Shown here one piece after another: positions 24,501 through 51,262 of a stretch of DNA of 52,124 nt. The stretch's first letter is position 1; every line of letters starts with the position of its first letter. The position numbers and the translations under genes were made by a program. Origin of the DNA: Polyangium fumosum (lineage in GTDB: Bacteria > Myxococcota_A > Polyangia > Polyangiales > Polyangiaceae); assembly GCF_005144585.1 (NCBI RefSeq), contig NZ_SSMQ01000086.1, positions 1 through 52,124 on the forward strand, given 5' to 3'. Under the pieces are notes generated by a model. The model ran no database searches, was not told the origin of the DNA, and saw only the letters and a list, made by a program, of their open reading frames with translations.

Positions 24501-24529
24501 TCGCGACCGCTCTCGGCGGTCCGAGGCCC

Positions 24530-30553: not shown

Positions 30554-30585
30554 TTGACAAACCAGGAAGAAAAAGCCGATATGTT
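30554..30585 (+). promoter_or_regulatory. Putative sigma-70 promoter of the tRNA-Ser remnant
   Basis: A perfect TTGACA -35 box lies at 30554-30559. A weak -10 is read as GATATG (30578-30583, 18-bp spacer) or TATGTT (30580-30585, 20-bp spacer). It is 13-15 bp upstream of the tRNA 5' end, as expected for a tRNA promoter. This suggests the locus was once a functional tRNA gene in place. Confidence 0.55.
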
Positions 30586-30598
30586 CGGCGTCTGCTTG

Positions 30599-30667
30599 GG
30601 AGGAGTGGCCGAGTGGTCGAAGGCAGCGGTTTTGAAAACGCGCGCCTGGCCTTGAATGCGCTCCTCG
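30599..30667 (+). pseudogene. Degenerate tRNA-Ser(UGA)
   Basis: Bases 30599-30638 are a textbook tRNA-Ser 5' half: acceptor GGAGGAG, TG, D arm GCCGAGTGGTCGAAGGC, then anticodon arm GCGGT-TTTGAAA with anticodon TGA at 30633-30635. The 3' side fails. The anticodon stem partner reads ACGCG instead of ACCGC, the long serine variable arm is absent, the T loop is reduced to TTGAAT, and CTCCTC is left as an acceptor remnant without GCCA. I infer a pseudo-tRNA at a former integration site. A functional UGA-serine tRNA must exist elsewhere. Confidence 0.7.
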
Positions 30668-31062
30668 GGTGAAGCGGCGAAGAACCCTGGTTTCAAGCTG
30701 AAAACACGGCCTGGACGCGTACTTGGGTGCCTTGGGCATGGGGTTCAGCCGAGGTGGGGAAGGCGACAGTACGGGACGGGGGAGGACGGCTCGGGGCGGT
30801 CGCGTGGGCAACGGATGGGCAACGGATGGGCAACGGGGGTGTTGCCCGCTGGGGGACGCTGGGCTGGGGCCGGGGGGACTGCGAGCCTCGACCTCATCGC
30901 GCCCGATCATCTGCATGCATGGCGATGGCGAACTGCCGCGTCGCCGTGATCTTGCTGTCCCTTAAAAGTTCGTCGGCCGCTCCCTTCTGAGATGTGGAGT
31001 GTCTTGCCCACCTGGCACGCCCTCCCTGCTCACGGGCCCGTGCGCCTGGCGCCCTGCCATCC

Positions 31063-31080
31063 GGGGAAACTTTTTTCCCC
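31063..31080 (+). promoter_or_regulatory. Hairpin in the leader of the CHAT operon
   Basis: GGGGAAA (31063-31069) pairs with TTTCCCC (31074-31080) around CTTT, about 36 bp upstream of the GTG start at 31116. It could influence translation or mRNA stability, or be a weak attenuator; it overlaps the region where a longer form from ATG 31089 would lack a ribosome site. Confidence 0.45.
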
Positions 31081-31115
31081 GCGGGGCTATGGCAGGCGAA
31101 CATCCGGAGGAACCC

Positions 31116-34100
31116 GTGACGAAAGACTTCACCCCCCAGGAAGCCCTCTCGGGCTGGACCGCTCTCCAGAAGCGCATGGCCTTTGAAGAAGAGGTCTCCT
31201 CGACCCCCATCGGCCACCAGTCCTTCGAGCTGCGGCAGCGGGCGCATGCGCTCCGGGAGAGGGGCGACATGAAGAGCGCCATCGCGCTCTACGAGCAGGC
31301 CGCGAACCTGTTCGACAAGGGCGATCCGAGCCCGGCTGCGGCGATGGCCTGGTTCGACCTCGGCCGCGCCTATGAGCACCGTGACGACGGCGTTCACAAG
31401 GACAACCTGCGAAACGCCGAGGTGATGTATCGCCGCGCGCTCGATTCGCCCTCGCTGCCGAGGGATCCCCACCGCATGGGCATGGTCCGCGATGCGCTCG
31501 CATCGTGTCTGCGGTACCTCGCGTACGAGAATCCCGCGGCGGAGAAGAGGCTCCTCGACGAGGCCACGAAGCTCTTCGAGGAGGCGGTCAGGATCGCCCT
31601 GACCACGGGATCCGCGGGGTTCGAGGACGTCGTGAGCTTTTCCCACAACCTCGGCAATTGTCGGGCGCAGCGTGGCGAATTCGACGCGGCGCTCTTCGCC
31701 ATGGATCGCGCCGAGGCGTATGCCCGCAGGCTCGGGCGCTTCGTCAAACCCGGGGCGCAGGAGGAGTACATCTCGCGGATCCTCGTCCACGCGGCGGGTC
31801 ATCGCGCGCGACGCGGGCGGGGCGGGGATGAGGAGCAGGCCAAGAAACAGCTCCGCGAGGCCATCGAGATCGGGCATCCGCAGTGGGTGGACACGGCGAT
31901 GCTGCGGCTCGCCAGGGTGTTGCTCGAGGAAGCGCCGCCCGCGATCGAGGAGGCCCAGGCCCTCCTGCGCCGGATCCGCGTCGATCGAATCCGCGCGGAG
32001 CTCCAGCCGGAGTTCGCCCACCTCCTCGCGAGCGCGGGGCTGCGCAAGGAGGCGCTCGAGCTTCATCAACGCCGGATCCAGAGCGCGATGGAGCAGTGGA
32101 AGGGCGCGATGGCCGACCACATCGCCGATCATCACGCCGCCATGGCGCAGACCGCGGCGCACAGCGCGGCCCGATTGCACCTCGAGGAGGAGGACGCGCT
32201 CGAGGCGTTCTTCACCCTGGAGTACGTCTCGGGCCTTCGCTTCACGGAGAATGTCGAGGCATTCACGCGGCTCCAGGAGAATCCGCTGCTCCGCGTCCTC
32301 GGTGGCTACTATCACGCGCGGAGCGTCCTCGCCGTCGAGCTGGAGGACGCCGCGAGCCGCCTGACGCAAGGCTTTCTCGACATTCGTGAGGCCCTGGAGA
32401 AGACGAAGGAGATCCTGCCTGTCGTGGATACGGGCGAGGTGCCGCGTCAGATGGCCGAGGAGCTCGTCGGGATCCTGGAGGAGACCGTGAAGCACCCCGA
32501 TCCCGCAGGGTACCTGCAGCGGAAGGCGCGCGAGGTCGGGCGAGAGGCGGTCCGGATCCGAGAGCGAATGGACGAGCTCGACTCGACGAGCGTGCGCCCG
32601 AAGGACAAATCATGGCTCTTAAGGCTCACGCGTGAGGTCGTCCGCGATTTGCTGCGGGAGCACCCGGATCATGCGTTCGTGCGGCTCAGCCTCGCCGAGG
32701 ATCTGCTCGTCGTGTCCGTGTGGCTCGAAGGAGACGAGGTGGTCACGCGCCACCACCGCGTGGACGTGCCCCGAAACCTCTTCCGGCGCATCTTCGAGCA
32801 CCGAAAGGACGCGAAACACCCGCCGCTCAAGCGGCTCGAGAAGATCACGTCCGATCTCGAGGCGCTCGATCTCTCCCCGGGCCTCCCGCCCCGCCGCATG
32901 GCCCACGGGGTGCTCTTGACGTCGTACATGGCCTCCTTCCTGCCGCTCGGCGCGCTCGGGCCGCGGGGAAAAACCCCGCTCGACCATTTCGAGGCGCTCT
33001 CGTGGATGCCTTGCCTGACGCCGCTCTTCGTTCGTCAAGCGGCGCTCGCGCCTCGCGAAGGGGTCGTCTCGATCGCACCTGGAGGGACACTTCACCACGC
33101 CTTCGCGTTCGGCGTCCCCCTTCCCAACGAGACGCGGATCGAAGGCCCCCGCGCCACGGAGGAGCGGGTGCGAGCCGCCGCGCGCAAGGCCGACGTGGTT
33201 TGCCTGTACACCCATGGCCGGCACGCGAGCGAGCGAGGCCCACACGTCGACCTGCACGGAAGCGAGTTCCTCGGCGAGGGCTCGCTGCCCGAGGGGTGGG
33301 CGGGCATGGAGCGCGTCGAGCTCTGGGCTTGCCAGTCGGGGGTCAACATGCCCTCCGATCCGCTCGTTCCTCCCGTGGACGAGGCCTTCGGGCTCGACGT
33401 CGCCTTCGTGCGGAACGGCGTGCGGAGCGCCATTGGGACTCTCTGGTCCGTGCCTGATTTCGTCACCGCCTGCATCGTTCGGCGCTACCGGGACGGCTTG
33501 CGCCAGGGTTTGCCCGCGCCCCGGGCGCTCGCCGACGCGCAGCGGTTCTGGCGGGACGAGGGAGCGCGGTCGCTCCTCGAGCACCTCACGACGGCCCCCA
33601 CGTTCGATGCAGGATTAAGGGCCTTCAAGGCGACGCTCGGGGCTCCCGAGGCGGAGGAGGAGCACGACGCGGAGATCGCGGCGTTCCTCGGTCCGTCGGC
33701 CGCTCCGACCGAGGACCCGCGGCGGCGCATTGAGGAGCAGGTGCGCAGGCTCGCGCACCCCCTGTCCTGGGCCGGCTTCCGGTTCGTGGGCGTCCACGAG
33801 CGGCGCCCCACCGAGCTCTACAATCCCGAGCACTTCCGGCCGATCACGCCGGAAGAGATGGCGGAGGGCGAGCGCATCGTCGCCGAGGTCCTCGCGGCTC
33901 GGGGAAAAGAGCGAGAAGGCAAACCCCTGGACGAATGGATCGAGGAATGGCTCGCGGAGGCGACGAAGCTCGCGCCAAGCGCGCCTCCGTCGCCCGAGCA
34001 GGCGATCCGCGTGGCGCGGCTCTATCGAGACCGGCTCGTCGCCTCCCCGCGACACAACCTGCTCACGGCCCTCGCGTGGCTGCACGAGGCCATGGCCGTC

Positions 34101-36659
34101 CTCGAAGGGACGAGCGAGGAGATGGGCCAGCGCGAGGCGAAGCAAAAGCTCGCGCTCGAGGCGGCATGGCTCTGGATCGAGGTGGCCCGTGGAGATGCAG
34201 TCTTCCCCCTCGATCTCCCGCTCATGGGGGCGCATCCGGTGGCCCTGGCGAGAGCGGAGCGACTCCTCCAGGGTTTGCCCGAGGACGACCATGTCCGGAT
34301 GGCGCGCGCGTTCATCGATTTGCTGAAAGCATCCAATGCGCGCGAAGATGACCTCGTCGCTGTCTTCGAGCGGACCTGGGCCATCACGGCGTCGGTCATT
34401 CAAGCGATGGCCCTGGAGAGCTACGAGACCCTCCGCACCCTCACGATCGCCTGGGAGATCCCGCTCTTCGTGCCGCGGCTCCTCCCCGAGGCCCGGAAGC
34501 TCTGCGCCCAGAAGATCGCCGAGGTCCTCGACAACCCAACGCGATCTGCCGAGTGCATCGGAGCCCGCGCGCGCCTTCGGAGCACGATGGCGCTCGTCGT
34601 TGTCGAAGAGATGCCAGACATCCTCAAGGAGGTCGATGGCATGGGCTCGCTCACGCCGCGGGAGCTCGCCCGGGAAGCGCTGCATTCCGGCATGTTGAGT
34701 GACGCTGCGCTCTCGCACGAAAAGCCGATGCAGGACAGGCGCTTCAACCGCGCCTGGGATGCAATCGAGGGCAGCCTCTGGGGATACCCCGAGGACGATC
34801 GTTCCCCGATCTGGGCGTCTACCGGCACGCTCGACGGGGCTTATCGCCGGCTCGCCAGCTCCCTGCTCGTCGGCATTGCGAGCGCTCCGCCCGGCGCGAG
34901 GGACGCGAGCCAGTTCATCGCTTGCCTGCAGCCACTCTGCGACCTTCGCTTGCCGCTGCTCCGGCGCTGGGTGTGGTTGATGCAGCCGTGGCGCGATCAG
35001 CGCTCCCTCCGCTTTTGGGTCATGGCCCGAGAGCGCGAGACGGTGCTGACGTGCCTCGAGGAATCAGCGCTGATGGTCGATCCAGACAAAGCGAGCGAAG
35101 AGCCCCCCGAGCTCCAGCCGCACCGGCTAGACCCGTTCCACGACACGGCCAGAGACCTCGCAACGAAGGGCAGGAGCACGCCTGACCTGATCCCTTGGCA
35201 GCTCTCGGAGGCGTGCGGCTGGTTGCCGCTCCCTGCCCTCCAGGGGGCGCGGACGGCGGCGTTCCAGGCAGTGCGGAGCAATCAGGTCCGGACCGAGGAG
35301 ATGCTCGCCGTGTGGCGTGCGCTGACCGAGGTGGCCGCCCGCGCGCCCCGCAATCGGGACGAGCCCGGCCCGGACGTGCTCTTCGACCCGGGGCTCCGCT
35401 TGCCGGCGCGGCAGGACCTTCTGCGCCGCGTCCCGCCGGCTTCCCTCGTGCTCGGCCTCGCGGTCGAGGCCTCCGGGCACCTCGTCGCCGCGTCGATCTG
35501 GAACAACGGCGACGGCGTCGAGGAGCGGGTTCATCTCACGGAATCGAAGGTGGGCTTTCTCGTGCAAGATCTCCTCGTGCGGCTTCACGCGGGATCCCTC
35601 TCGGAAGAGCCTCTCCAGTGCATCTCGGCCGAGGGTCGCGCAGAAGCCTGGGACAAGCTCGAAGGGCTCCTCGCGCCCGTGCTGGAGCGCCTGCTCGGAC
35701 CCGCGCTGGAAAAGGAGCCCATGCTGGTCTACGTCCTCGCGCCGGGCTCGCTGCGGACCCTCCCGCTCCTCGGCATGCGTGTCGGCGGCGAGCCCCTCTT
35801 CAAGCGCGTTCGGGCGCTCGTTCACCTGCCGACGCTGAATTTCGAGCCCCCCGCCGCAAAGGAGGGAACGCTGGAGGCCTGCTGGCTCCCGGTGGAGCGG
35901 GAGCGGGGCGACACCTCGTGCGGCGAAGCGGTCGTCGAGACCCTGCGCCGGTGGTTCGCGCCCGTCACGATCTATCCGCCGACGACGCCGACGCGCGACA
36001 TCCACGAGGTGGAGCAGCTCGATCCGATGGGGCCCGCGCTCCGAACGCTGCGGATTTCCGCGACCTCGCATCCCTTCACGGCGACCGACGGCACCGCCTC
36101 GTTCAACCTCGAAGGGGGACGCGCGTACAGAGTCCGGAACACGCACGGCCTCATGCTCCCGTCCTGCGAGGAAGTCGAGCTCTGGGCCGCCACCGCCGGG
36201 ATCGGCCCAGTCGATGCCATTCGCAGAAACGATCGGGATCACCTCCCGGGCCTCGTCGGCGACTTCCTCGCCTGCGGCGCGGCAGCGGTGCTCGATCTCG
36301 CCTGGCCCATCTTCGACCTCGTCAAGGCGCTCGTCTGCGAGCGCTTCGGCGTCCTGCGGCGCCTCTCCGAGCTCAGCGGCCCTGGGGCGCTCGCGGAGGC
36401 CGTCGCCAGCGCGGCCGACTTGCTTGCGCAATGGCGCGCCGCCGCATCTTCCTTCGCGGACGTGGAGATCGCCCTTGAATTCCTCGATGAGCAGCGGCGC
36501 CGGTTCGCCCGCGACGCAGGGCTCGATCCTCGCGCCGTCGTTCCTCTCGCGGCTCGGCTCGACGCGCCCTCGCTGCGAGGCCTCTCCGTCGAGGCCCTCG
36601 TGGAGGAAGCTTGCAGCCCCGTCCATCTCGCGGCATTCCGGTACTGGTCCTGGCTCTGA
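31116..36659 (+). CDS. Giant TPR protein with tandem CHAT caspase-like domains (second one inactive)
   Basis: The 1847-aa protein is given a start at GTG 31116 because GGAGG lies 5 bp upstream; ATG 31089 has no such site. Residues about 35-430 are TPR-like helical repeats. CHAT domain 1 (about 515-850) has the dyad His700 in CLYTHGRHAS and Cys739 in VELWACQSG, followed by VRSAIGTLWSVPDFVTACIV. Residues 850-1440 are helical without a known domain. CHAT domain 2 (about 1445-1845) aligns with the first: His1652 in ATSHPF is kept, but the Cys position is Ala1692 in VELWAATAG, and GTLW is degraded to DLAW. CHAT proteases act in bacterial immunity and cell death (for example TPR-CHAT/Csx29). It heads a four-gene operon. 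Confidence 0.93.
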   Translation: MTKDFTPQEALSGWTALQKRMAFEEEVSSTPIGHQSFELRQRAHALRERGDMKSAIALYEQAANLFDKGDPSPAAAMAWFDLGRAYEHRDDGVHKDNLRNAEVMYRRALDSPSLPRDPHRMGMVRDALASCLRYLAYENPAAEKRLLDEATKLFEEAVRIALTTGSAGFEDVVSFSHNLGNCRAQRGEFDAALFAMDRAEAYARRLGRFVKPGAQEEYISRILVHAAGHRARRGRGGDEEQAKKQLREAIEIGHPQWVDTAMLRLARVLLEEAPPAIEEAQALLRRIRVDRIRAELQPEFAHLLASAGLRKEALELHQRRIQSAMEQWKGAMADHIADHHAAMAQTAAHSAARLHLEEEDALEAFFTLEYVSGLRFTENVEAFTRLQENPLLRVLGGYYHARSVLAVELEDAASRLTQGFLDIREALEKTKEILPVVDTGEVPRQMAEELVGILEETVKHPDPAGYLQRKAREVGREAVRIRERMDELDSTSVRPKDKSWLLRLTREVVRDLLREHPDHAFVRLSLAEDLLVVSVWLEGDEVVTRHHRVDVPRNLFRRIFEHRKDAKHPPLKRLEKITSDLEALDLSPGLPPRRMAHGVLLTSYMASFLPLGALGPRGKTPLDHFEALSWMPCLTPLFVRQAALAPREGVVSIAPGGTLHHAFAFGVPLPNETRIEGPRATEERVRAAARKADVVCLYTHGRHASERGPHVDLHGSEFLGEGSLPEGWAGMERVELWACQSGVNMPSDPLVPPVDEAFGLDVAFVRNGVRSAIGTLWSVPDFVTACIVRRYRDGLRQGLPAPRALADAQRFWRDEGARSLLEHLTTAPTFDAGLRAFKATLGAPEAEEEHDAEIAAFLGPSAAPTEDPRRRIEEQVRRLAHPLSWAGFRFVGVHERRPTELYNPEHFRPITPEEMAEGERIVAEVLAARGKEREGKPLDEWIEEWLAEATKLAPSAPPSPEQAIRVARLYRDRLVASPRHNLLTALAWLHEAMAVLEGTSEEMGQREAKQKLALEAAWLWIEVARGDAVFPLDLPLMGAHPVALARAERLLQGLPEDDHVRMARAFIDLLKASNAREDDLVAVFERTWAITASVIQAMALESYETLRTLTIAWEIPLFVPRLLPEARKLCAQKIAEVLDNPTRSAECIGARARLRSTMALVVVEEMPDILKEVDGMGSLTPRELAREALHSGMLSDAALSHEKPMQDRRFNRAWDAIEGSLWGYPEDDRSPIWASTGTLDGAYRRLASSLLVGIASAPPGARDASQFIACLQPLCDLRLPLLRRWVWLMQPWRDQRSLRFWVMARERETVLTCLEESALMVDPDKASEEPPELQPHRLDPFHDTARDLATKGRSTPDLIPWQLSEACGWLPLPALQGARTAAFQAVRSNQVRTEEMLAVWRALTEVAARAPRNRDEPGPDVLFDPGLRLPARQDLLRRVPPASLVLGLAVEASGHLVAASIWNNGDGVEERVHLTESKVGFLVQDLLVRLHAGSLSEEPLQCISAEGRAEAWDKLEGLLAPVLERLLGPALEKEPMLVYVLAPGSLRTLPLLGMRVGGEPLFKRVRALVHLPTLNFEPPAAKEGTLEACWLPVERERGDTSCGEAVVETLRRWFAPVTIYPPTTPTRDIHEVEQLDPMGPALRTLRISATSHPFTATDGTASFNLEGGRAYRVRNTHGLMLPSCEEVELWAATAGIGPVDAIRRNDRDHLPGLVGDFLACGAAAVLDLAWPIFDLVKALVCERFGVLRRLSELSGPGALAEAVASAADLLAQWRAAASSFADVEIALEFLDEQRRRFARDAGLDPRAVVPLAARLDAPSLRGLSVEALVEEACSPVHLAAFRYWSWL

Positions 36660-36668
36660 GGAGAAACC

Positions 36669-37211
36669 ATGACGAGCGCGCAGGTCTATGACCCGATCGA
36701 CGATTGGACGCCCGAGGGTCGGAGGCGCCTCGTCGAGGCCCGCGGGGACGAGATCCGCGCGCTGCTCGACCTCGCGTTCACCGATTTCGTCGAGACCCAC
36801 GAGGTCGGCCTCTCGTCGTTCGGGTTTCGCGGGGACGACCCTGTCAGCGAGGCCGTGGAGTGGTCGATGAAGCGATTCGTCGACGCCGATATCGATCCCG
36901 CGTACCTGCACCCTGGGTCCCGGAGCTTGCGCCTCTTCACGGAGGCGCGGTTCTGGCTGCATCAGAAGGTCGGTCGTGAAGGATATGGCCGTCTCCTCGC
37001 GGCTCCGCGCTCCCCCGAAGTCCCACGCGAAGAGGCACACGGTGGGGAAGGGGACGGTCTCGATCCCGGCGCAGTCGAGGAGTTCGGGAAGACGCTCGCG
37101 GCGACTCTCCGCACGCTCGGCCATCGCACCTGCGCGGACCTCGCGGGATTCTGGCTCGAAGCGACTCGGACATTGCGGCGTGCGTGGTTCGGCTGGCGTG
37201 AGCGCGGCTAG
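36669..37211 (+). CDS. Hypothetical protein, second gene of the CHAT operon
   Basis: The 180-aa protein starts at ATG 36669, 9 bp after the CHAT stop, with GAGGAG overlapping that stop. It is soluble, acidic in the first half and helical. The stretch EAVEWSMKRFVDADIDPAYL, then SLRLFTEARFWLHQKVGREG, loosely resembles the layout of sigma-70 region 2, but this is weak and no region 4 HTH is obvious. A linker (about 110-135) separates a C-terminal helix rich in Trp/Arg. Function unknown; operon position suggests a substrate, regulator or partner of the CHAT protein. Confidence 0.75.
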   Translation: MTSAQVYDPIDDWTPEGRRRLVEARGDEIRALLDLAFTDFVETHEVGLSSFGFRGDDPVSEAVEWSMKRFVDADIDPAYLHPGSRSLRLFTEARFWLHQKVGREGYGRLLAAPRSPEVPREEAHGGEGDGLDPGAVEEFGKTLAATLRTLGHRTCADLAGFWLEATRTLRRAWFGWRERG

Positions 37212-37232
37212 ATCTCGGAAAAAGGGGCGGCC

Positions 37233-37670
37233 TTGTCGAAGAAACAGCGGAGCTTCTACGGCCACGACGCCATGTTCCGATTCCTGTGCTTGCTGCACGA
37301 CCTCGTCCCACCCGAGCCGGAGGACCTCGCCGAGCGCGCGCTCCTCCTCACGACGCTCTCCCCTTGCGAAAACACGCCGCCCTATCGTGTCCCCGATGAC
37401 GTCGTTCTGCCGCTCCTCGGAGCTCTCGGCGTACAAGGCCGACGCGAGGTCGGGCATTTACGTAAAGAGGGAGCCAAGCGGTGCGTGCGACGTTGCCTCG
37501 AGCAGGCATTTCCACGCGCGCTCGCGGCCGCGAAGGAGAGCCTCGCCGCCGAGCTGACACGCCAATCGCTCGGCCCCACGACCCTGCATGCGCTCGGCAT
37601 CGAGGACGATATCACGTTGCGAGAGCAGATCGGCGCCCTCTCCAAGCCCAGCTCGGAGGCCTCTTCATGA
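37233..37670 (+). CDS. Hypothetical protein, third gene of the CHAT operon
   Basis: The 145-aa protein is assigned the TTG start at 37233 (LSKKQRSFYGHDAMFRF), with AGGGG upstream; ATG 37272 is a shorter alternative. It is helical, with conserved-looking LLHDLVPPEPEDLAERALLL, a Cys/Arg cluster GAKRCVRRCLEQAFPRALAA and a C-terminal TLREQIGALSKP. No membrane segment or known domain is seen. Its stop overlaps the next ATG (ATGA), so it is translationally coupled to the fourth gene. Confidence 0.72.
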   Translation: MSKKQRSFYGHDAMFRFLCLLHDLVPPEPEDLAERALLLTTLSPCENTPPYRVPDDVVLPLLGALGVQGRREVGHLRKEGAKRCVRRCLEQAFPRALAAAKESLAAELTRQSLGPTTLHALGIEDDITLREQIGALSKPSSEASS

Positions 37671-38281
37671 GCCGGCCGGATGCGGAGACGCTGGACGCGC
37701 TCGTCCTCGGCACGGACGCGCCCGAGGATCGCGAGGCCTGGGAGGCGCTCGTGCGGAACCCGGGCGGTGCGGAGATGTTTCGGGAAGCCGTCACGCGACG
37801 GCGGCGCCGAGATCTCGTAGCTTCCGCGCTCCTCGGCAGACCGTGGCTCGCGCGGGCCATTGCGAGGCTTTCGGCGATGTCACGCCAAACGAAGGCTGCG
37901 CCGACGGGGACGTTTTCCCTCCTGTTTCCGGATGCCGAGCTCGACGCGCTGGTCACCGCGACGCTGGGCCCGGCGGAGGAGGGACCAGGCGCGGAGAGTC
38001 TGGCGCCCCGCTGGGGACAGGTCGTTCCTGTGCGAATGCGGGTGGGCGACCGAATCACGCTCGAGCCATCGCCCGGCGCGGATCCGGTGGACGTGCGTTA
38101 CGTGTGCCAGGGGGCGGAAGGTGCTCTCCCCACGCGGACCTGGAAGCTCGAAGCAGGGGAGGCGCCGGTTTTGCTGGTCGCGCTCGTGGGGACAGCGCCT
38201 GGAGAGACGCTCGCGGAGGCCCTGGTCCACGCAAAGGCGATGGCAGGTGTGGTTCTGCTGGACGAATCGTGGAGCCTCTGA
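37667..38281 (+). CDS. Hypothetical protein, fourth gene of the CHAT operon
   Basis: The 204-aa protein starts at ATG 37667. The N-terminal 80 residues are helical (LDALVLGTDAPEDREAWEAL, then MFREAVTRRRRRDLVASALL). The C-terminal 90 are beta-rich (VRMRVGDRITLEPSPGADPV, then DVRYVCQGAEGALPTRTW), suggesting a two-part protein. The opening resembles short regulatory domains of anti-sigma type, but no zinc-binding motif or membrane helix follows. No family is recognised. It ends the operon, 12 bp before the stop of the convergent 207-aa gene. Confidence 0.75.
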   Translation: MSRPDAETLDALVLGTDAPEDREAWEALVRNPGGAEMFREAVTRRRRRDLVASALLGRPWLARAIARLSAMSRQTKAAPTGTFSLLFPDAELDALVTATLGPAEEGPGAESLAPRWGQVVPVRMRVGDRITLEPSPGADPVDVRYVCQGAEGALPTRTWKLEAGEAPVLLVALVGTAPGETLAEALVHAKAMAGVVLLDESWSL

Positions 38282-38293
38282 GAGCAGAGGCGT

Positions 38294-38917
38294 TCAGCTC
38301 GTCTTTTTCCTTGTTTCGAGCTTCGTGTCCTTGATCTTCGTATCTGTGGGCAGCTTCAACTCCCCGACCTTCTCGAACTTGAGCATGAAGTCGTACGCGA
38401 GATCATGGAGCAGAAGCCTGGGGTCGTAGCCGAGCCCCTTCGCGATCGCGTCGAAGCGCTCCTTATCAGCAACCCTGTCGAAGGTCACGATGATGCTGTC
38501 AGGGTAGATATCGCTATCCGGAACCCTCCAGCACGTGATCACCTCGATCCTGCCGTCGGGCGTCTCGACTTCGACCACAAATGTATTTCCAGCGTGCTTG
38601 AACACGATGTGTTTGCGGTGGTCTCTGAAGTACCTCCTGTCGTTCTCGGATAGGTACTGCCTGGCCTCTTCGGCATCGACGAATCGGCCATCGCGCATCG
38701 ACTTAGCGAAAGAGGGCCACAGCAACTGGAAAAGTTGCTTGCACTTCGAATCCGAAAGTTGGGGCTTATTCCGGTAAACGATATCGTCGAGCGTCAGCCC
38801 TGCCTCCTGGTAAAATGGCTCGAACAGCACAGTTGGAGCCACGTACCGCGTGAATGCGGCAACGTTGAGCCTGCTGAAGTCGATCTCGTCGTTCCAGATC
38901 GCCGCCTCTTTGCTCAT
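38294..38917 (-). CDS. Hypothetical protein of lower GC content
   Basis: The 207-aa protein starts at ATG 38917 (MSKEAAIWNDEIDFSRLN), 31 bp downstream of the 1050-aa gene on the same strand. The composition is unlike its neighbours: more Lys, Ile, Phe, Tyr and Asp and less Ala/Arg, and the DNA is visibly poorer in GC, so recent transfer is likely. Readable features are FARYF-type aromatic clusters (ENDRRYFRDHRKHIVFKHAG) and a beta hairpin NTFVVEVETPDGRIEVITCW. No domain is recognised. It could be a late cargo gene or part of the leftward operon. Confidence 0.8.
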   Translation of the reverse strand: MSKEAAIWNDEIDFSRLNVAAFTRYVAPTVLFEPFYQEAGLTLDDIVYRNKPQLSDSKCKQLFQLLWPSFAKSMRDGRFVDAEEARQYLSENDRRYFRDHRKHIVFKHAGNTFVVEVETPDGRIEVITCWRVPDSDIYPDSIIVTFDRVADKERFDAIAKGLGYDPRLLLHDLAYDFMLKFEKVGELKLPTDTKIKDTKLETRKKTS

Positions 38918-38948: not shown

Positions 38949-41900
38949 CTACCCCGACAGCAACACCCGATTGATCAAATCCACATCCAGCACCTGCACC
39001 GCGACCTGCACCTTCCCACTTTTCACCGTCTTCCCCCGGGTCACCTGCGCCGGCGGCAGCAAGCACACCACCTCGATCGCCGCCCCCTGCGCCCCCCGCC
39101 ACTCCAAGAGCAGCTTCGGCAACTCCGTCCCCGCCTGCTCTTCACCCGCCAGGGCCGGCCAGATCACCCACGACAGGGCTTCCCGCGCCACCTCCGCCGC
39201 CGGTCCATCCCCGGAGAGCGCATGCTGAAGTGCCCCAACCAGATGCCCGATCCGCCGCCCGAGTTCCCCGCCGATCTGGGCCTTCGACAGGTCCACATCG
39301 ACGTTTGGATCCAGCGTCGTGTACCCGAGAACGAAAGACAGCCCGTCGTCCTTCTTGGTCACGCCGAGCCAAACCATCCCCTGCGAGTCATCGTGGGGCT
39401 CGCCGACCAGCGCCTCGTAGCTCTGCCCCTCGATCGGCGCGATCACCGGCGGCGTCGATCCCCCGGCTCTCCTCCCGATCTCGATCGCGAGCAGCCCCGC
39501 CGCGACGAGCTGCTCATTCGTACGCCGCAGCGACACGAGCCCCGCGCGCGTCGCCGATGCGAGCCTCGTAGCGAGCGACTGCAATGCTTTCGGGCGCTCT
39601 TCGTGCAGCTCGACCTTGCGCAGTCCCTGTTGCACGGCCCGGATCGCGGGCCGCACGTCACGCGTCACGACCGCGCACGTCGCATGCTCATCCACCCGCT
39701 CGTGCACGAGCAGGAACGAGCGCAGCGGCGGCCTCCTCCCAACGCTCGGCCCCACGATGACGCCCCACGTCGCATTGCCGAGCTGCAGCCGCTCGAGCTC
39801 CGCGCGCAGCGATAGCCCCGAGGCATCCGCGATGAATGCGCGCTGCGCTGCCCTGCCGCGCGACGCGGCGTGGAGCGCCTCGAACGCCTCGAGCTCCGGG
39901 ACGCCCGCGATCGACGTGCGAACCCGGAGCCGATGCTCCCGCAGCTCGAAGACCGTCCGCACCGGCCCCTCTGGCGCCGAGAAGGTCTGGTGCGCAGGGG
40001 ACGCCGGCTCTTCATTCTCCTGTGATGTCGCCGGGCGGCCGACATGGATCGCGATATGCGGCGCATCCGCGCCAGCGGCGGCCGCGCCGACGGGGAGGGG
40101 CCCCAGGCGCAAGCGCCCTTCGCCGAGGAGCCCCTGCGACGCGGTAAAGGACCGACCCGAGAGATCCGGCGGGCGAGCGCAAAGCACGGAGAGCTCGCGC
40201 AGGCTGGGCGCCTCGAATGCAATGGCGCCACGTGAAAGCCCTTCGATCAAGGGAGCCGCTTCGCGATCGTTGTAGATCGCGACACGACACCCGAGGAGCG
40301 CGTGGGGGCACAGCGATAGATACCGGCGAATGAGCTGCTCGCCCAGCTCGACGAGCGAGCTTTGAGGGATCACCTCCGGCGTGCGCTCGAAGACGAGCAA
40401 GCCGCCCTCGGTCCCCGAGTACCCGAGCTCCGCCCCGTCCACCTCCAAGAACTCGGCGGGCGCCGATGGCGCAGCCTCGATCGCCCGCTTGACGCGCTTC
40501 CGCGCCGAATCCGACAGCGACGCGAGCGCCCGTTGCCGCATGTACGCGAGCCCCAGTGTGAGCAGGTGCGTGGGGCCCGCGACGCGGACGGTCACGCCCC
40601 CGCTGTCGCGAATCGCGCACGTATCGAGCGCGAGGACCTCCCGCATGGTGGCCTGGTCCGCGTCGACCGCCGCGTTGTAGAGTGCGATGGTCGCGTCTAC
40701 GAAGCGGCGTGCCGCTCGCTCGACATTCCCATCCTCGAGCAGCTTCGGCAATGCGCCGGCGAGCAGTACCCCAGCGTTCTGCCCCTCGAAGACGAACGCG
40801 ATCGCCTCGAGGAGGTTCTTCCGCTCTTTCGCCCACGCGGCCCATTCCCTCGGCAGCTCCCTGAGCGCGCGCTCCGAGCGGCGCACGCTGAGCGTCGCAA
40901 TCTTCGGCAACCCTTCGAGAAACGAGCGCGCCCCGACACGCAACGTCGCCTCGACCGGATGCCCCTCGTCGCGGAGCAACTCGTCCACGAGCACCGCGAG
41001 CCCCTTCGGCAGAGCGGGAGCATGAACGCGCGCGTGTTTCGCAGGCCCCGGCGCAGGCGACGGTTCCTCGGCCTGCTCGACCTCGTCTTCTTCTTCTTCA
41101 ACCTCAAGGACGTCAGCGTCACGTGAAGCTCTGGGCTCGACCTTTGGCGACGCTTTGACCGGAGGACTCTCGGCGCGCCCTTTTCCCTTTGGCGCGGGCG
41201 GCGGCGGCGGCTCCGGGGCGCTAGCAGCCTTCGCTTTGCCGGGCTTCGCAGGAGGCGCCGCGGGCTCCGGGGGCTCGACGGGGGACGGCTTCGGCCTCGT
41301 CGCTTTCGGCGGGGCGAGCTGACGCGTGGTCAAGGGCTTCAGGTCGATCGCGGCGAGCGCCTTCTGACGCGCCTGCCCCGTCGAGCTCGCGAGGGCCTCC
41401 TGGACCTGGGCCTCCATTTCGGAGAGCGGCCCCTCCGCCGTGCGCCGCCGCGACTCACCCGTCTGCGCAGCCCTCACGATCTTTGCATTCGCGGCGAGCC
41501 GATCCGCCGCGTCCGCCTTCGATAGCCTCGTATCGCGCGCCAGCCCCATGACGGGGAGGCTGTTCCCGACGGCCTCCCACGCTGGAGCTCGCGCCCCGGC
41601 GGCCTTTGCCGCCTGCGCGAACTCGCACAGCGTGGCGATGCGGACCTGGCGATCGAGCCCCGACTTCTTTAGCGACTCCGCGAGACCAGCGGGCAACCCG
41701 CTGTCCTTCTGGTCGCACCAAGCGAGGAATGCATCGCGGAGGGCGTCCTCGCGAACTGGCACGAGGCAATCCTTCAGGCCGCTCGCCTTCGGGTGGTCCT
41801 CCACGCTGACGTAAATCAGGTGCTCCTTGGACTTGACCTCGACGCTATTCCGCCAGGCTGTCGCCTGCTCGGCAGCGCGGTGATCTGGCGCGATCATCGT

Positions 41901-42101
41901 CCGCTCGGAGCGCTCGAAAGGAACCCCTGGCGCGGACCCGACGATGAAGACCTTCGCGCCGAGTACCCGGCGGAGCTCTTTTACCACGTCGACGAGCTCC
42001 GAGGCCGTGAGGGTGATCGGGCAGATGCGAAGCCCGAGGCGCTGCGGCTCCTCCTTGAAGAGCTCGCTAGCCGCCAGGGCGATGAGCGTAGATACCTTCA
42101 T
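38949..42101 (-). CDS. 1050-aa protein of unknown function, third gene of leftward unknown operon
   Basis: ATG 42101 overlaps the stop of the 466-aa gene (ATGA). Residues 1-150 form an alpha/beta domain (SELVDVVKELRRVLGAKVFI, VGSAPGVPFERSE, HLIYVSVEDHPKASGLKD). Residues about 230-370 are a disordered Pro/Ala/Lys linker ending in an acidic patch (LEVEEEEDEVEQAEE). The C-terminal 680 residues are folded, with hydrophobic strands such as SLRAELERLQLGNATWGVIV. No Walker motif, nuclease signature or methyltransferase motif is visible. The two-domain, linker-joined plan resembles components of multi-gene phage-defence systems lacking their ATPase. Function unknown. Confidence 0.85.
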   Translation of the reverse strand: MKVSTLIALAASELFKEEPQRLGLRICPITLTASELVDVVKELRRVLGAKVFIVGSAPGVPFERSERTMIAPDHRAAEQATAWRNSVEVKSKEHLIYVSVEDHPKASGLKDCLVPVREDALRDAFLAWCDQKDSGLPAGLAESLKKSGLDRQVRIATLCEFAQAAKAAGARAPAWEAVGNSLPVMGLARDTRLSKADAADRLAANAKIVRAAQTGESRRRTAEGPLSEMEAQVQEALASSTGQARQKALAAIDLKPLTTRQLAPPKATRPKPSPVEPPEPAAPPAKPGKAKAASAPEPPPPPAPKGKGRAESPPVKASPKVEPRASRDADVLEVEEEEDEVEQAEEPSPAPGPAKHARVHAPALPKGLAVLVDELLRDEGHPVEATLRVGARSFLEGLPKIATLSVRRSERALRELPREWAAWAKERKNLLEAIAFVFEGQNAGVLLAGALPKLLEDGNVERAARRFVDATIALYNAAVDADQATMREVLALDTCAIRDSGGVTVRVAGPTHLLTLGLAYMRQRALASLSDSARKRVKRAIEAAPSAPAEFLEVDGAELGYSGTEGGLLVFERTPEVIPQSSLVELGEQLIRRYLSLCPHALLGCRVAIYNDREAAPLIEGLSRGAIAFEAPSLRELSVLCARPPDLSGRSFTASQGLLGEGRLRLGPLPVGAAAAGADAPHIAIHVGRPATSQENEEPASPAHQTFSAPEGPVRTVFELREHRLRVRTSIAGVPELEAFEALHAASRGRAAQRAFIADASGLSLRAELERLQLGNATWGVIVGPSVGRRPPLRSFLLVHERVDEHATCAVVTRDVRPAIRAVQQGLRKVELHEERPKALQSLATRLASATRAGLVSLRRTNEQLVAAGLLAIEIGRRAGGSTPPVIAPIEGQSYEALVGEPHDDSQGMVWLGVTKKDDGLSFVLGYTTLDPNVDVDLSKAQIGGELGRRIGHLVGALQHALSGDGPAAEVAREALSWVIWPALAGEEQAGTELPKLLLEWRGAQGAAIEVVCLLPPAQVTRGKTVKSGKVQVAVQVLDVDLINRVLLSG

Positions 42102-43498
42102 GACAGCTCTCCACCGACCTCCGCACCACCATCCGGCAGGCGACGCGCAACGCCACGGCGTACCGCGTTCGACAGCAGCAACTCCGCGTTCTCCGCGAGC
42201 TGCTCGGCGCTGACGTTCTCGATCCCGATCGACTCCAGCGCTGCCGTATCGGCCGACACGTTGCTGCCGACGACGACCCCGAGCTCCTCTCGGACGCTAC
42301 GCCAGAAGTCGTTCCACGGGCGCGGCATAGAGCCACGCGGGACAAGCATCAGGACGAGCACTTCCACGAGCTCCGATGTGAGCGCGAGGTGCTTTCCCCA
42401 CCCGGCCTTGTCATTGCGCGGCAAGACGCACCCAGCCTTGCGGCCGAAGGCCACGAAGAACTTGTCGGGCCAATACAGATCCTTCTCGTCTCCCTTGCTG
42501 CCACCATAGTCGCGCGCGGCGGCGATGATGCCCTCTGCGCTGCTCGCGAGCGGGCCGCGAGGTACCTCCAGGCAATCGGCCTTGGCCCGCGGCTTCGCCT
42601 CGATCTCCTGCGCATACGGGTGGCTCGGGATCAGCTTGGCGACGCACTGATCGAAGGCATCGATACCGCGCTTGAACGAGCCCACCGCCTCCTGCCGCAC
42701 GGGCTTGATCTGCCCTTGCTGCTCGGCGGCGAGCGCGAGCACGAGGGGACGCCCGTGCGGGCGACCTGCGCCCAGGAACTTCAGTACGACCCCAAGGCTC
42801 GCCCCGAGCGCGAAGAGCCGAAGAATGGCCGGCTTGCTCAAGGGCTGCGCGAGGAGCGTCGAGAGCCTGCGCCCCAGGGCCTCGTCGAACGCCGTCCGCT
42901 TGATCTCCTTGGGCGGCTGCTTGTCCACGAGGTCCGCCTCGAGGAGCAGCGGGCGGAACGCGCGCGTGATCGGATCCCCCTCGTCCTCGAGCAGGCGCTT
43001 CAATCGCTGCCGGCCCTCGGCCGCGAGCGCGTTCGCGAGGTAGCCGCCAATTCGGAAGCGCCGGAACCCCTCGAAGCCCAGGAGGGCCTTGTGCGTCGCG
43101 AGCGGGCTGGCCATCGACGTGCCGGGCGCGTACAAGCCGCCGTCCGCGTTCAGCACGATGCGCGCGGCGCGGCGGAGATCCTCGACGCGCTGCGGGCCGA
43201 GCGACGGCGGAAACGCCTGGTTGAACGCGGCGCCGAATCGCTTGTCGCTGCGCATCGCGCGCTCGCTGTTGTCCTCGTCCTCGACGTCGAACCGGATCAC
43301 GCGGGAGAGAAAGTCTCCGCCATGGGCCGGCGCGCCTCCGAGGATGGATTGCGCCACGTCGTTCATGAGGTGGACGCCCTTGTAGGCCGTCGTCGCCGCG
43401 CGGAAGCCGAGCGCTTGCTCGAAGGCCCCGGGGACCTCCTGGTCTCCCATGAGGGTCCGGCGGACAGCCTCGAACTCGACCTTGCGGGTGTTAGACAT
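42098..43498 (-). CDS. 466-aa protein of unknown function, second gene of leftward unknown operon
   Basis: ATG 43498 lies inside the end of the 133-aa gene (8-bp overlap), and the stop overlaps the next ATG, so the gene is tightly coupled on both sides. Mostly soluble mixed alpha/beta sequence is seen. Readable segments are ALGFRAATTAYKGVHLMNDV, ADGGLYAPGTSMASPLATHK, AILRLFALGASLGVVLKFLG, YWPDKFFVAFGRKAGCVLPR and MPRPWNDFWRSVREELGVVV. None matches a family I know. Its long conserved-looking blocks suggest a real, structured core component of a system. Confidence 0.85.
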   Translation of the reverse strand: MSNTRKVEFEAVRRTLMGDQEVPGAFEQALGFRAATTAYKGVHLMNDVAQSILGGAPAHGGDFLSRVIRFDVEDEDNSERAMRSDKRFGAAFNQAFPPSLGPQRVEDLRRAARIVLNADGGLYAPGTSMASPLATHKALLGFEGFRRFRIGGYLANALAAEGRQRLKRLLEDEGDPITRAFRPLLLEADLVDKQPPKEIKRTAFDEALGRRLSTLLAQPLSKPAILRLFALGASLGVVLKFLGAGRPHGRPLVLALAAEQQGQIKPVRQEAVGSFKRGIDAFDQCVAKLIPSHPYAQEIEAKPRAKADCLEVPRGPLASSAEGIIAAARDYGGSKGDEKDLYWPDKFFVAFGRKAGCVLPRNDKAGWGKHLALTSELVEVLVLMLVPRGSMPRPWNDFWRSVREELGVVVGSNVSADTAALESIGIENVSAEQLAENAELLLSNAVRRGVARRLPDGGAEVGGELS

Positions 43499-43892
43499 AC
43501 CTCGCTGCTCCGTTCTTCTCCGAGCGCACGCGCGCCGCCGCGACCAGCTCACCCCTCGGACGCTCGAGGATCGCGGCCTCCTCATCCACCGGCCCGCGAG
43601 CGCGGGTCTCTTCATCCCACCCCGCGAGCCGCACGAGGAACCGCTGCACAGGCTCCGGGATCGACACGGGCCCCGACGTCCCGGAAGCCGCGCGGAGGGC
43701 CGCGAGGAGCTCGGGATCGACGCGCAGCGAGACACCGGAAGCACGGTGGTACAGCCACGCGACTTCTGGCGGGGGCCCAAGGGCGTCGGCGATCCAGGGG
43801 GCGCGAAGGGGGCGCGTGAAGTCCTCACGCGCCCCGGACAACCCCGTGTGATGCCGCGAGAGATCCGGGCGTAGCGTCTCGCGAGTCCACAC
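43491..43892 (-). CDS. 133-aa protein, first gene of leftward unknown operon
   Basis: The small basic, soluble protein starts at GTG 43892 with no clear ribosome site. It reads GPPPEVAWLYHRASGVSLRV, then ELLAALRAASG and PEPVQRFLVRLAGWDEETRA, and ends with AARVRSEKNGAARYV. No domain is recognised. It precedes the 466-aa gene with an 8-bp overlap, and its start lies at the left edge of the 21-bp periodic tract, from which its promoter must arise. Confidence 0.7.
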   Translation of the reverse strand: MWTRETLRPDLSRHHTGLSGAREDFTRPLRAPWIADALGPPPEVAWLYHRASGVSLRVDPELLAALRAASGTSGPVSIPEPVQRFLVRLAGWDEETRARGPVDEEAAILERPRGELVAAARVRSEKNGAARYV

Positions 43893-49501: not shown

Positions 49502-51262
49502 TTGATCCTCCGCGATCTCGTCCAGATCGGCTGGCAGGTACGGTCGGAAGGGGAGGCTATCTGGATTCGTCCCCACGACGACCAAGATGCCGGGCCGACG
49601 AAGGAGGCCGTGCGCCGGCAGCTCCTCTTCGGCCGCAAGGACCAGCTCCACAGCCACTCGGTACGGCGCTTCATCGAAGAGTTCGAGCGTCCGTCACGCG
49701 GCGCGCGATACGAGTCGATCATCAACCTCATCGCGGACGGTCGGAGGCTCGCCGCAGCGCTGCGCCCGGTCGCAGCCAAGTCGCGCGCCGAGCGCGCAGA
49801 TCTGCTCCGGGGGATCTGTCGGCCTTATTTACAAGCCGCGGAGACCGGTGTCCGGGATCGATTCACGAACATCGACCTGTATCAGGTGTGGCGGTACTTC
49901 CGGCACACGTGGTCGAGCCGGTACCGACGAACGCCGGGGCGCGTCCTCGCCTACCTCATTCGAGATGCCGCGCAGCCGCACCACCCCGTCATTGGCATTG
50001 CGTCATTGAGCAACGCCGTGATGCAGCTTTCCGCCCGTGATGAGTGGATCGGTTGGACGCTGGATGGGCTCCTCGCGCGGATTCGGCTAGGAGAGCTCAC
50101 GGATGTGGAAGCCCTCGAAGCCTTGCGCCGCAGGGTTCGTGAGGATCTCGGGGCCCTCTACACCGAGGATCTGGGGTTCGACGGCGCCCACCCCCCGCTG
50201 CTCGAGGACGCGCTCGAGCAGCGGCTCGCAGAACTCGCGCGAGAGGCTCTCGGCCAGAGAGGCGCGCAACTCAAGGAGGGCGGCGTAGAGCGCGAGGTCT
50301 CGCTCGAGGGCGCAGACCTGCTCGATCGTGCCAAATCCCCGCTGTTCCGTGCCAAGCGGGCCGCGACTGCGAGGGTATTGCTCCGGGCCCACCGTGCACT
50401 TTCCAGCACGCAGGGCTCTCTTTCATCGCTGTTGGCCGACTCCGAGGCGCGATGGGCGGCGGAGCTCGCCCTGCGTCAGACGAAGCAACATTTCGCTTCG
50501 TCGGCGATCATGGAGATCACCACCTGTGGCGCGGCGCCTCCCTATGGTCACCTGCTCGGCGGAAAGCTCGCCTGCCTGATGATGGCGAGCCCGACCGTCG
50601 TGAGGGCGTACCGCGCCCGTTACGAAGGCGAGGCGAGCATCATTGCGAGCCAGATGGCCGGTCGACGGATCACGAAGGATCCGACCCTGGTCATGCTCGG
50701 AACGACGAGCCTGTACCCTGAGCGCTCGTCGCAATACAATCGGGTGCGCCTCCCCTCGGGCACGATTCCAGGGCAGACGTCTTCTGTCGATTACATCGAG
50801 GTGGGGCGCAGCGGCGGCCACGGCTCGACAAACTTCAGCGCAGAAGCGGAGGAAGCCCTCGCCAAGCTGGCGGTGGATCAACGGGAGTTCCAGAACGTGA
50901 ACTTCGTCTTCGGGGAGGGCGTGAGCCCTAAGATGCGGCAGATCCGGGAGGGGCTCGCTGCACTCGGGCTTCAGGCGTCGGATTTGATCCGCCACGGTTC
51001 GCCGCGGATCGTGTATGTCGTCCCGCTCGCGCGAAACACGCGGAGGTTTTTGCTCGGCGTCGACAGCTCGCCGGAGTACGCATTTCCGCTGGATGACGAT
51101 GGCGGGGAGGCGGTCGCCGAGTATTGGCGGTCGAGGTGGCTCGCGAGCAGGCTGGACCATGCACCCATGCTGGACGAGCTTGCCAAGATGACGCCCGAAG
51201 GCCTGCGGGTGTCGTGCGAGTGGGATCATGCGCCACCGGGGGTGCAGCGGCTGTTGTTCTGA
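49502..51262 (+). CDS. DruA-like DUF4338 protein (Druantia-type defence)
   Basis: The first canonical start is TTG 49502, giving 586 aa. Residues about 160-185 carry the DUF4338-type segment HPVIGIASLSNAVMQLSARD followed by EWIGWT. Later blocks are TKQHFASSAIMEITTCGAAP, PYGHLLGGKLACLMMASP, TLVMLGTTSLYPERSSQYNR and EVGRSGGHGSTNFSAEAEEA. DUF4338/DruA proteins occur in Druantia anti-phage systems with a large helicase; biochemical role as a nuclease is suggested in the literature but not certain here. Coding-like sequence extends 58 codons upstream to a possible CTG at 49328. No DruE-type helicase is adjacent; the divergent helicase fusion is the only candidate partner. Confidence 0.85.
   Translation: MILRDLVQIGWQVRSEGEAIWIRPHDDQDAGPTKEAVRRQLLFGRKDQLHSHSVRRFIEEFERPSRGARYESIINLIADGRRLAAALRPVAAKSRAERADLLRGICRPYLQAAETGVRDRFTNIDLYQVWRYFRHTWSSRYRRTPGRVLAYLIRDAAQPHHPVIGIASLSNAVMQLSARDEWIGWTLDGLLARIRLGELTDVEALEALRRRVREDLGALYTEDLGFDGAHPPLLEDALEQRLAELAREALGQRGAQLKEGGVEREVSLEGADLLDRAKSPLFRAKRAATARVLLRAHRALSSTQGSLSSLLADSEARWAAELALRQTKQHFASSAIMEITTCGAAPPYGHLLGGKLACLMMASPTVVRAYRARYEGEASIIASQMAGRRITKDPTLVMLGTTSLYPERSSQYNRVRLPSGTIPGQTSSVDYIEVGRSGGHGSTNFSAEAEEALAKLAVDQREFQNVNFVFGEGVSPKMRQIREGLAALGLQASDLIRHGSPRIVYVVPLARNTRRFLLGVDSSPEYAFPLDDDGGEAVAEYWRSRWLASRLDHAPMLDELAKMTPEGLRVSCEWDHAPPGVQRLLF

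What the first reader, a model, noticed from the sequence alone, without database searches (positions are those of the whole stretch)
31116..38281. Operon headed by a TPR protein with two CHAT domains, the second a pseudoprotease
Seen directly: one 1847-aa frame contains two alignable CHAT domains. The first keeps His700 and Cys739; the second keeps a His (1652) but has Ala (1692) where Cys should be, and its GTLW motif is degraded. Three small unrecognised genes follow with 9-bp, 21-bp and overlapping junctions. Known: TPR-CHAT proteases act in type III-E CRISPR (Csx29/Csx30) and in other immunity or death modules, where a small neighbour is the substrate. Inference: domain 2 may be an allosteric or substrate-binding arm, and the three small proteins may be substrate, inhibitor and sensor. 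A catalytic/dead CHAT pair in one chain would parallel active/inactive caspase pairs.
Basis: partly seen in the sequence, partly recalled or inferred. Interest (0 to 1): 0.85.

Follow-up and report, generated by a model that had tools for sequence, protein, structure and literature searches.

The report
Protease operon with dead twin domain
A myxobacterial operon, sitting beside virus-defence genes, encodes a protease of the kind used in bacterial immunity that carries a second, disabled copy of its own cutting module and is inherited with two unknown partner proteins and, in its relatives, with the antiviral enzyme viperin.

Summary
The 1847-aa protein (A) has two CHAT modules. The first matches Pfam CHAT (1.1e-16), matches a TPR-CHAT chain in PDB weakly (E 0.02), and keeps His700/Cys739. 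The second is CHAT by profile (hhalign 96.8%, E 2.3e-10; the So ce26 copy by Pfam, 4e-4) and is dead at both catalytic positions: Cys to Ala1692 in all four sequences aligned, His to Thr1650 (Ala or Val in relatives). The "three small genes" are two: B and C are halves of one gene, interrupted here by an in-frame TAG and whole in relatives. A-BC-D order is conserved in Sorangium cellulosum So ce26 and twice in a Myxococcales metagenome bin; in those three the next gene is a prokaryotic viperin, absent here. Three of the four loci have recognised defence neighbours (BREX, GmrSD-like, Druantia); the fourth was not surveyed. More distant loci pair BC-like genes with another CHAT protein, or a subtilase, and a different radical-SAM enzyme. 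A single-CHAT relative has sigma-like and zinc-finger genes, as in Craspase; BC and D failed those tests. Best reading: a protease-gated immune operon, a new variant of TPR-CHAT systems; the window copy looks partly eroded. Substrate and trigger unknown.

The parts
31116..36659 (+). Gene A: TPR-like region, CHAT1 (catalytic dyad present), middle region, CHAT2 (dead); 1847 aa
31116..32525 (+). N-terminal TPR-like region, residues 1-470
   Evidence: TPR_12 E 3.4e-5, below its curated cut-off
32613..33815 (+). CHAT1 module, residues 500-900; His700 codon 33213-33215, Cys739 codon 33330-33332
   Evidence: Pfam CHAT 1.1e-16; profile of the module hits PDB 7zoq, molecule 'TPR-CHAT', E 0.02; dyad identical in aligned rows
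35403..36656 (+). CHAT2 module, residues 1430-1847; Thr1650 codon 36063-36065 (His position), Ala1692 codon 36189-36191 (Cys position)
   Evidence: hhalign to CHAT1 96.8%, E 2.3e-10; So ce26 counterpart Pfam CHAT 4e-4; Foldseek, weak; column check
36669..37211 (+). B: first half of the BC gene (180 aa), ending at an in-frame TAG (37209-37211)
   Evidence: one frame with C; relatives have one 330-335 aa gene
37233..37670 (+). C: second half of the BC gene; possible restart at TTG 37233 behind an AAAAAGGGG stretch
   Evidence: the restart is inference
37667..38281 (+). D: 204-aa partner, ATG overlaps the C stop (ATGA)
   Evidence: conserved next to BC in So ce26 and both MAG copies, 31-50% identity
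38286..38306 (+). terminator-like hairpin after D
   Evidence: consensus scan only; 7 such sites found in 30560-38600 against 3.3 expected
49502..51262 (+). DruA (Druantia), a defence gene to the right of the operon
   Evidence: Pfam 9.5e-37, PADLOC 1.4e-147

Best explanation
A protease-gated immune operon. A is held inactive. An infection cue sensed through its TPR-like and middle arms frees the CHAT1 His700/Cys739 dyad. The second CHAT module no longer cuts and serves as a docking or allosteric platform for the dedicated partners. BC (predicted mostly helical, in a low-confidence model) and/or D are the client or the brake. Cleaving one of them releases the effector arm, which in the complete form of the operon is the viperin encoded just downstream (prokaryotic viperins make chain-terminating nucleotides; recalled). 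Shown: domain anatomy, dyad, dead CHAT2, conserved A-BC-D order, viperin in three of four double-CHAT loci, defence neighbours at three of the four. Inferred: cue, substrate, CHAT2 role, link to viperin. In the window BC is interrupted and viperin is absent at the locus, so this copy is either reduced or decaying.
For: CHAT1 has the dyad and the family profile. CHAT2 is a conserved pseudo-module. A-BC-D order in the window, So ce26, MAG copy 1 and MAG copy 2 (contig-broken). Viperin directly after D in 3 of these 4 by PADLOC pVip: MAG copy 1 5.1e-81, MAG copy 2 5e-82, So ce26 in two halves 3e-50 and 2.8e-28. Defence neighbours: BREX PglZ/BrxC/BrxD/BrxHI at So ce26, GmrSD_N/HEC-05 at MAG copy 2, DruA and a restriction-type helicase in the window. 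BC-like genes next to another CHAT protein in G273 and G281 (Pfam CHAT 1.6e-10 each), followed by a radical-SAM enzyme of PADLOC type PDC-M51A (4.3e-142; 2.6e-143).
Against: No substrate, cleavage or phage assay. BC and D reach no curated cut-off in Pfam or NCBIfam and no PADLOC hit (C has one 19-bit NCBIfam match against a cut-off of 324), and the BC and D profiles have no credible PDB hit. The AF2 model of BC is unusable (mean pLDDT 42.7). The window copy has no viperin on its contig (32 radical-SAM matches in the genome, none on C185) and has a stop in BC. The genome's best viperin match lies elsewhere (C156, E 1.1e-70) with no A, BC or D profile hit in the 19 kb fetched around it, so viperin can live without this operon. 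The flanks of MAG copy 1 were not surveyed for defence genes. The double-CHAT locus is rare: strong CHAT2 hits in 3 of 317 genomes of the class.
Confidence: 0.45

Rival explanations
1. Craspase-like transcription switch: BC is a divergent sigma factor, D its anti-sigma, and CHAT1 cuts the anti-sigma to turn on a stress regulon.
For: In G160 a single-CHAT relative of A's N-terminal half (34% identity) is followed by a sigma-70-like gene (Sigma70_r4 1.9e-4, r2 0.015, both under Pfam's cut-offs; hhalign 68.6%, E 4.6e-5 and hmmsearch 5.8e-8 in the in-house test) and a zf-HC2 protein (3.7e-4, just under cut-off). Csx29 cuts Csx30, which inhibits CASP-sigma (PMC10028731, passages). By eye, B resembles sigma region 2 and the D N-terminus a zinc-less anti-sigma; the sigma profile gives window C 0.02 and B 0.065 in a six-sequence hmmsearch, marginal at best.
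Against: hhalign of BC and its halves against a profile of 30 sigma-70 loci of the same genome: 0.1-0.3%. D against five zf-HC2 sequences: 0.2%. No sigma hit for BC in Pfam at E 10 or PDB. The G160 sigma-like gene itself has no PDB hit by phmmer at 0.1.
Confidence: 0.15
2. The window locus is a decaying remnant: viperin lost, BC broken by a nonsense codon, A and D not yet eroded.
For: In-frame TAG in BC; no viperin-like match on the window's contig. Two of the other three double-CHAT loci also look damaged: So ce26 viperin split by IS21 genes (IstB_IS21 4.5e-63), MAG copy 2 A apparently split across two contigs.
Against: A keeps full length and its dyad; C and D keep homology and the overlapping start. 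C has a possible ribosome site and TTG start, so two chains may be made. A sequencing error is not excluded.
Confidence: 0.3
3. Abortive-infection protease that kills by cutting house-keeping proteins or a pore former; BC and D are inhibitors only.
For: A TPR-CHAT protease is said to activate a bacterial gasdermin (PMC9729208, passages). Damage at three of four loci would fit a costly toxin.
Against: No gasdermin or other pore-protein hit among the nine proteins scanned from A rightward; viperin in relatives points to a nucleotide-based effector.
Confidence: 0.15
4. Regulatory or developmental module of myxobacteria, not defence.
For: The strong double-CHAT hits come from 9-15 Mb genomes of one class; one of four loci (MAG copy 1) has no defence neighbour shown because its flanks were not surveyed.
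Against: Patchy distribution: none of the five other same-genus genomes searched. Defence genes beside three of the four loci.
Confidence: 0.08

Closest known systems
Csx29 / TPR-CHAT of type III-E CRISPR (Craspase, CASP)
   Same: TPR-like region followed by a CHAT protease; His and Cys in the corresponding motifs (YTHG/YCHG and WACQS/GAC in the alignment); encoded with small dedicated genes.
   Different: No Cas7 or Csx hit among the nine proteins from A rightward in PADLOC; the only cas matches are weak helicase cross-hits of the 1476-aa restriction helicase (DinG 1.2e-5, Cas3 0.011). No CRISPR-type array in 24000-52124. A second, dead CHAT module. BC and D profiles do not hit the PDB's sequences credibly. 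Viperin in relatives.
Separase
   Same: Caspase-like active domain paired with a pseudo-domain in one long chain. The resemblance of TPR-CHAT to separase, and the pseudo/active pair in Csx29, are from PMC9729208 and PMC10028731 (passages); separase's own pseudo-domain is recalled.
   Different: Here the dead copy follows the active one and is a second CHAT module; separase itself was not compared.
Prokaryotic viperins (pVip)
   Same: The downstream gene of the relatives is a pVip by PADLOC.
   Different: Placed in an operon with a CHAT protease; absent from the window locus.
Caspase-ECF sigma conflict systems (EACC2/DUF1822; Kaur et al. 2021)
   Same: Caspase-family protease coupled to an ECF sigma gene (PMC8195603, passages), as in G160.
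   Different: BC is not sigma by test; the word CHAT does not occur in that paper's main text.

Membership tests
TPR-CHAT protease | CHAT domain by profile | tested here: met
   PF12770 1.1e-16, 61.5 bits against a cut-off of 24
TPR-CHAT protease | His/Cys dyad | tested here: met
   His700, Cys739 identical in the aligned homologues; activity not tested
TPR-CHAT protease | TPR repeats before CHAT | tested here: inconclusive
   TPR_12 3.4e-5 but under the curated cut-off
CHAT family (second module) | homology to CHAT | tested here: met
   hhalign to CHAT1; So ce26 piece Pfam 4e-4, under cut-off; no Pfam hit in window or MAG pieces
CHAT family (second module) | His/Cys dyad | tested here: not met
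   Thr1650, Ala1692; Ala/Val and Ala in relatives
Type III-E CRISPR CASP | Cas7-11 encoded nearby | tested here: inconclusive
   no Cas7 hit in nine proteins; whether PADLOC-DB holds a Cas7-11 model was not checked, and the left side was not scanned with PADLOC
Type III-E CRISPR CASP | CRISPR array nearby | tested here: not met
   none in 24000-52124; the left 24 kb not checked
ECF sigma factor (BC) | sigma2/sigma4 homology | tested here: not met
   hhalign 0.1-0.3%; shallow BC profile, so a remote relation is not excluded
Zinc anti-sigma (D) | zf-HC2 HxxxCxxC | tested here: not met
   no such motif in the four D sequences; hhalign 0.2%
pVip (gene after D in relatives) | pVip profile | tested here: met
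   5.1e-81, 5e-82, and two halves 3e-50 and 2.8e-28; the window locus lacks the gene
anti-phage defence system | protection against phage | not testable with these tools
   only neighbourhood evidence

The most novel reading that the evidence does not exclude
A CRISPR-free, protease-gated viperin immune system. A TPR-CHAT protease regulated by its own dead twin processes the BC/D pair to unleash a radical-SAM antiviral enzyme. It is one branch of a modular family in which the protease (double CHAT, single CHAT, or possibly subtilase) and the radical-SAM enzyme (viperin or PDC-M51A type) are swapped around a BC-like adaptor.
Probability: 0.28. Interest if true: 0.82.

Novelty: new variant of a known kind. 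Interest (0 to 1): 0.62.

Why it matters
It would put a caspase-type protease and viperin, two immune enzyme types known from animals, in one bacterial operon. It also gives a case of a protease carrying a conserved dead copy of its module in the same chain, so the role of a pseudoprotease can be tested by deletion. The adaptor BC links loci with CHAT and subtilase proteases and two radical-SAM types, pointing to a wider family.

Tried and rejected
Sigma/anti-sigma identity of BC and D was attractive by eye and not supported by profile tests. The first sigma test used the wrong strand for 16 of 30 loci and is void; one search replaces it. Of the six sequences printed there one (L027) is still in a wrong frame; the other 24 were not inspected. 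Searches compared a wrong-strand reading of the own-genome viperin and are void; one search replaces them (48.5% identity to MAG copy 1).

A whole TPR-CHAT duplication was not supported: N-terminal against middle region, hhalign 0.6%; only the CHAT module is visibly repeated. CHAT2 as an active protease with a surviving His was rejected. AF2 of BC was unusable. Homology of D with the gene in the same place in G273/G301 was not supported (0.17%). A PDB sequence search with the CHAT2 profile gave only chance hits, and the G160 CHAT protein had no credible PDB hit. The G442 hit to the BC profile (E 3.3e-4) was dropped as chance: no A or D profile hit in its 14 kb. Marginal A or CHAT hits in G173 (4.1e-4, 8.4e-4) and G185 (1e-3) were not counted as relatives.

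Viral contigs: 102 pattern stretches, none a relative. Plasmids: no match. The phage collection was not searched.

Papers, ten searches: CHAT + sigma factor + viperin, 0; CHAT domain + anti-sigma factor, 1, the Craspase paper; CHAT/pVip/defence island pairs, 2 papers, neither with pVip; CHAT/protease/phage defence/sigma/operon, 35 with four terms, 15 listed (its top hit, PMC11229360 on type III CRISPR effectors, was seen only in the listing); (listings); PDC-M51, 0; 'two CHAT domains', 'tandem CHAT', 'inactive CHAT', 0 occurrences in the 30 of 37 papers listed. Passages only were read of PMC8195603, PMC12839542, PMC7159879, PMC10853773, PMC9729208, PMC10028731 and PMC10907252. Only open-licence PMC papers are searched; the first prokaryotic-viperin paper (recalled) was not seen.
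Full report
WHAT IS THERE. The window is a whole 52,124-bp contig of a 13-Mb genome; the contig is about 69% GC. Gene A runs 31116-36659, GTG start with GGAGG upstream. Pfam finds CHAT at residues 673-892 (1.1e-16), weak TPR at 40-90, and nothing in the C-terminal third. B, C and D have no hit in Pfam or PADLOC, and in NCBIfam only one 19-bit match of C against a cut-off of 324.

CHAT1. A profile of the window, So ce26, MAG copy 1 and G160 sequences hits one PDB chain, named TPR-CHAT (7zoq; that it is Csx29 is recalled), at E 0.02, with the YTHG and WACQS motifs lying on its YCHG and GAC. His700 and Cys739 are identical in the rows compared.

CHAT2. The C-terminal profile (window, So ce26, MAG copies 1 and 2) aligns with the CHAT1 profile over 370 columns (96.8%, E 2.3e-10; 94.3%, E 1e-7 with three sequences and other boundaries). 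Alone, the So ce26 piece matches Pfam CHAT at 4e-4 over profile positions 15-263 (20.4 bits, cut-off 24); the window and MAG pieces do not match at all. The AF2 model is poor (mean pLDDT 43.6). Of five Foldseek PDB hits under E 0.001, two are chains of entries titled Craspase with TPR-CHAT (7y84, 7y83). The best (7xc7, 'bacterial protein complex') has a chain of similar length, but its title does not name TPR-CHAT. The other two are one ciliary entry. TM is about 0.2, so this is support, not proof. Cys739 corresponds to Ala1692, Ala in all four rows. His700 corresponds to Thr1650, Ala in So ce26 and Val in both MAG copies. CHAT2 is not drifting freely: 50% identity between window and So ce26, against 58% for CHAT1, 44% for the TPR-like and 43% for the middle region.

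BC AND D. In So ce26 (335 aa) and both MAG copies (330, 331 aa) one gene stands where the window has B and C. The BC profile matches the window 36669-37640 with one internal TAG (E 3.6e-96). Hence B and C are one gene with a nonsense codon, or a recent split with a TTG restart, or a sequencing error. D is conserved next to it, 50% to So ce26 and 31-33% to the MAG copies. Neighbouring stops and starts overlap or nearly touch.

RELATIVES. Full-length A was found in 2 of 144 genomes of the order (window and G056). In a second draw of 144 from the class, 3 had a match: the window, G160 (N-terminal half only, 34%), and G173 with marginal hits. A genome-collection scan gave So ce26 and MAG JAUSAZ01 (only two short patterns were used, so it is insensitive). 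The CHAT2 profile gave 7 of 317 genomes of the class at E <= 0.001, but only window, G570 and G056 are strong (E below 1e-220); the other four lie at 1.9e-4 to 4.1e-4. So there are four double-CHAT loci. In three the gene after D is a viperin by PADLOC: MAG copy 1 (5.1e-81), MAG copy 2 (5e-82; 85.8% identical to copy 1), and So ce26 in two halves (3e-50 and 2.8e-28) separated by IS21 genes. MAG copy 2 lies on two contigs and its A seems interrupted; the ORF beside the break looks like a transposase by eye but has no Pfam hit. The window's contig has no viperin-like match among 32 in the genome; the profile also rings in all 14 control genomes, so most of these are other radical-SAM proteins. 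One strong match (1.1e-70) lies on contig C156, with no A, BC or D hit in the 19 kb around it.

MORE DISTANT LOCI. BC-profile searches gave 5 of 329 phylum genomes and 3 of 289 class genomes, the window included in both. Counting loci, with G442 dropped: eight have BC or a BC-like second half (window, So ce26, MAG twice, G273, G281, G301, G039). In six of eight the upstream gene is a CHAT gene or its fragment (G273 and G281: Pfam CHAT 1.6e-10 each, no TPR hit above cut-off). In G301 a subtilase (PADLOC 1.7e-13) lies divergently beside it; in G039 no CHAT was found on its 6.4-kb contig. A radical-SAM gene lies downstream in five (the three viperin loci, G273 and G281), on the other side in G301, and none was seen in the window or G039, whose contig ends 0.3 kb after the gene. 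The G273, G281 and G301 enzymes are PDC-M51A by PADLOC (4.3e-142, 2.6e-143, 1.7e-146). G273 and G281 are two species of one genus and nearly the same locus. G160 has a single-CHAT relative of A's N-terminal half followed by a sigma-70-like gene and a zf-HC2 gene, each a little under Pfam's cut-off, with DISARM drmA beginning about 6 kb further on.

CONTEXT. So ce26: BREX PglZ, BrxC, BrxD and BrxHI upstream, ending about 1.8 kb before A. MAG copy 2: GmrSD_N/HEC-05 protein divergently upstream. Window: to the right, weak SspH/SspG matches, a HIT-helicase-S24 fusion that also matches type IV restriction profiles, and DruA. To the left, seven ORFs scanned in Pfam gave an amidohydrolase, a RarA/MgsA-type ATPase and others, none a known defence gene; PADLOC was not run there. 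MAG copy 1 flanks were not surveyed, apart from one radical-SAM-like gene.

MECHANISM. Craspase is the working precedent: RNA recognition rearranges TPR-CHAT, which cuts Csx30, and Csx30 binds a sigma factor (PMC9729208 and PMC10028731, passages only). By analogy CHAT1 would be released by a cue and act on BC or D. CHAT2, dead but conserved, would hold the client or the switch, and viperin would be the effector in complete operons. Each of these steps is inference. The direct sigma-switch copy of Craspase was tested for BC and D and not supported, though G160 suggests that the CHAT/sigma pairing exists nearby in sequence space.

NOVELTY. A second CHAT module dead at both positions, a two-gene partner set, and a viperin in the same operon were not found in the searches made, which cover open-licence papers only. 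I rate it a new variant of TPR-CHAT immune proteases. Damage in three of four double-CHAT loci may mean the system is costly; that is a remark on four loci, not a statistic.

Noticed in passing
window 45045-49475 (-): 1476-aa fusion of a HIT domain, a weak PLD-like stretch, an SF2 (ResIII) helicase and a Peptidase_S24 domain; also matches type IV restriction helicase profiles.
   Followed up: no
window 49502-51262 (+): DruA of Druantia (PADLOC 1.4e-147; Pfam 9.5e-37).
   Followed up: partly
window 38949-43954 (-): Two adjacent genes with weak SspH (6.8e-5) and SspG (0.0039) matches, possibly a divergent restriction pair.
   Followed up: no
window 24208-24508: Head-to-tail array of a 43-nt unit; no spacers, not CRISPR-like.
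   Followed up: no
L011 2354-6955 (G160): Operon of single-CHAT protease, sigma-70-like gene and zf-HC2 protein, DISARM genes nearby: looks like a Craspase-style switch; no cas gene was looked for beyond the proteins scanned.
   Followed up: partly
L020 4436-8941 (G301): Subtilase beside a BC-like gene, a small gene and a PDC-M51A radical-SAM gene.
   Followed up: partly
L012 17216-20756 (So ce26): Viperin gene split by an IS21 istA/istB-type insertion.
   Followed up: yes
G000 contig C156:199130-199951 (L059, L069): A viperin at another locus of the window's own genome, with no A, BC or D profile hit within 19 kb.
   Followed up: partly
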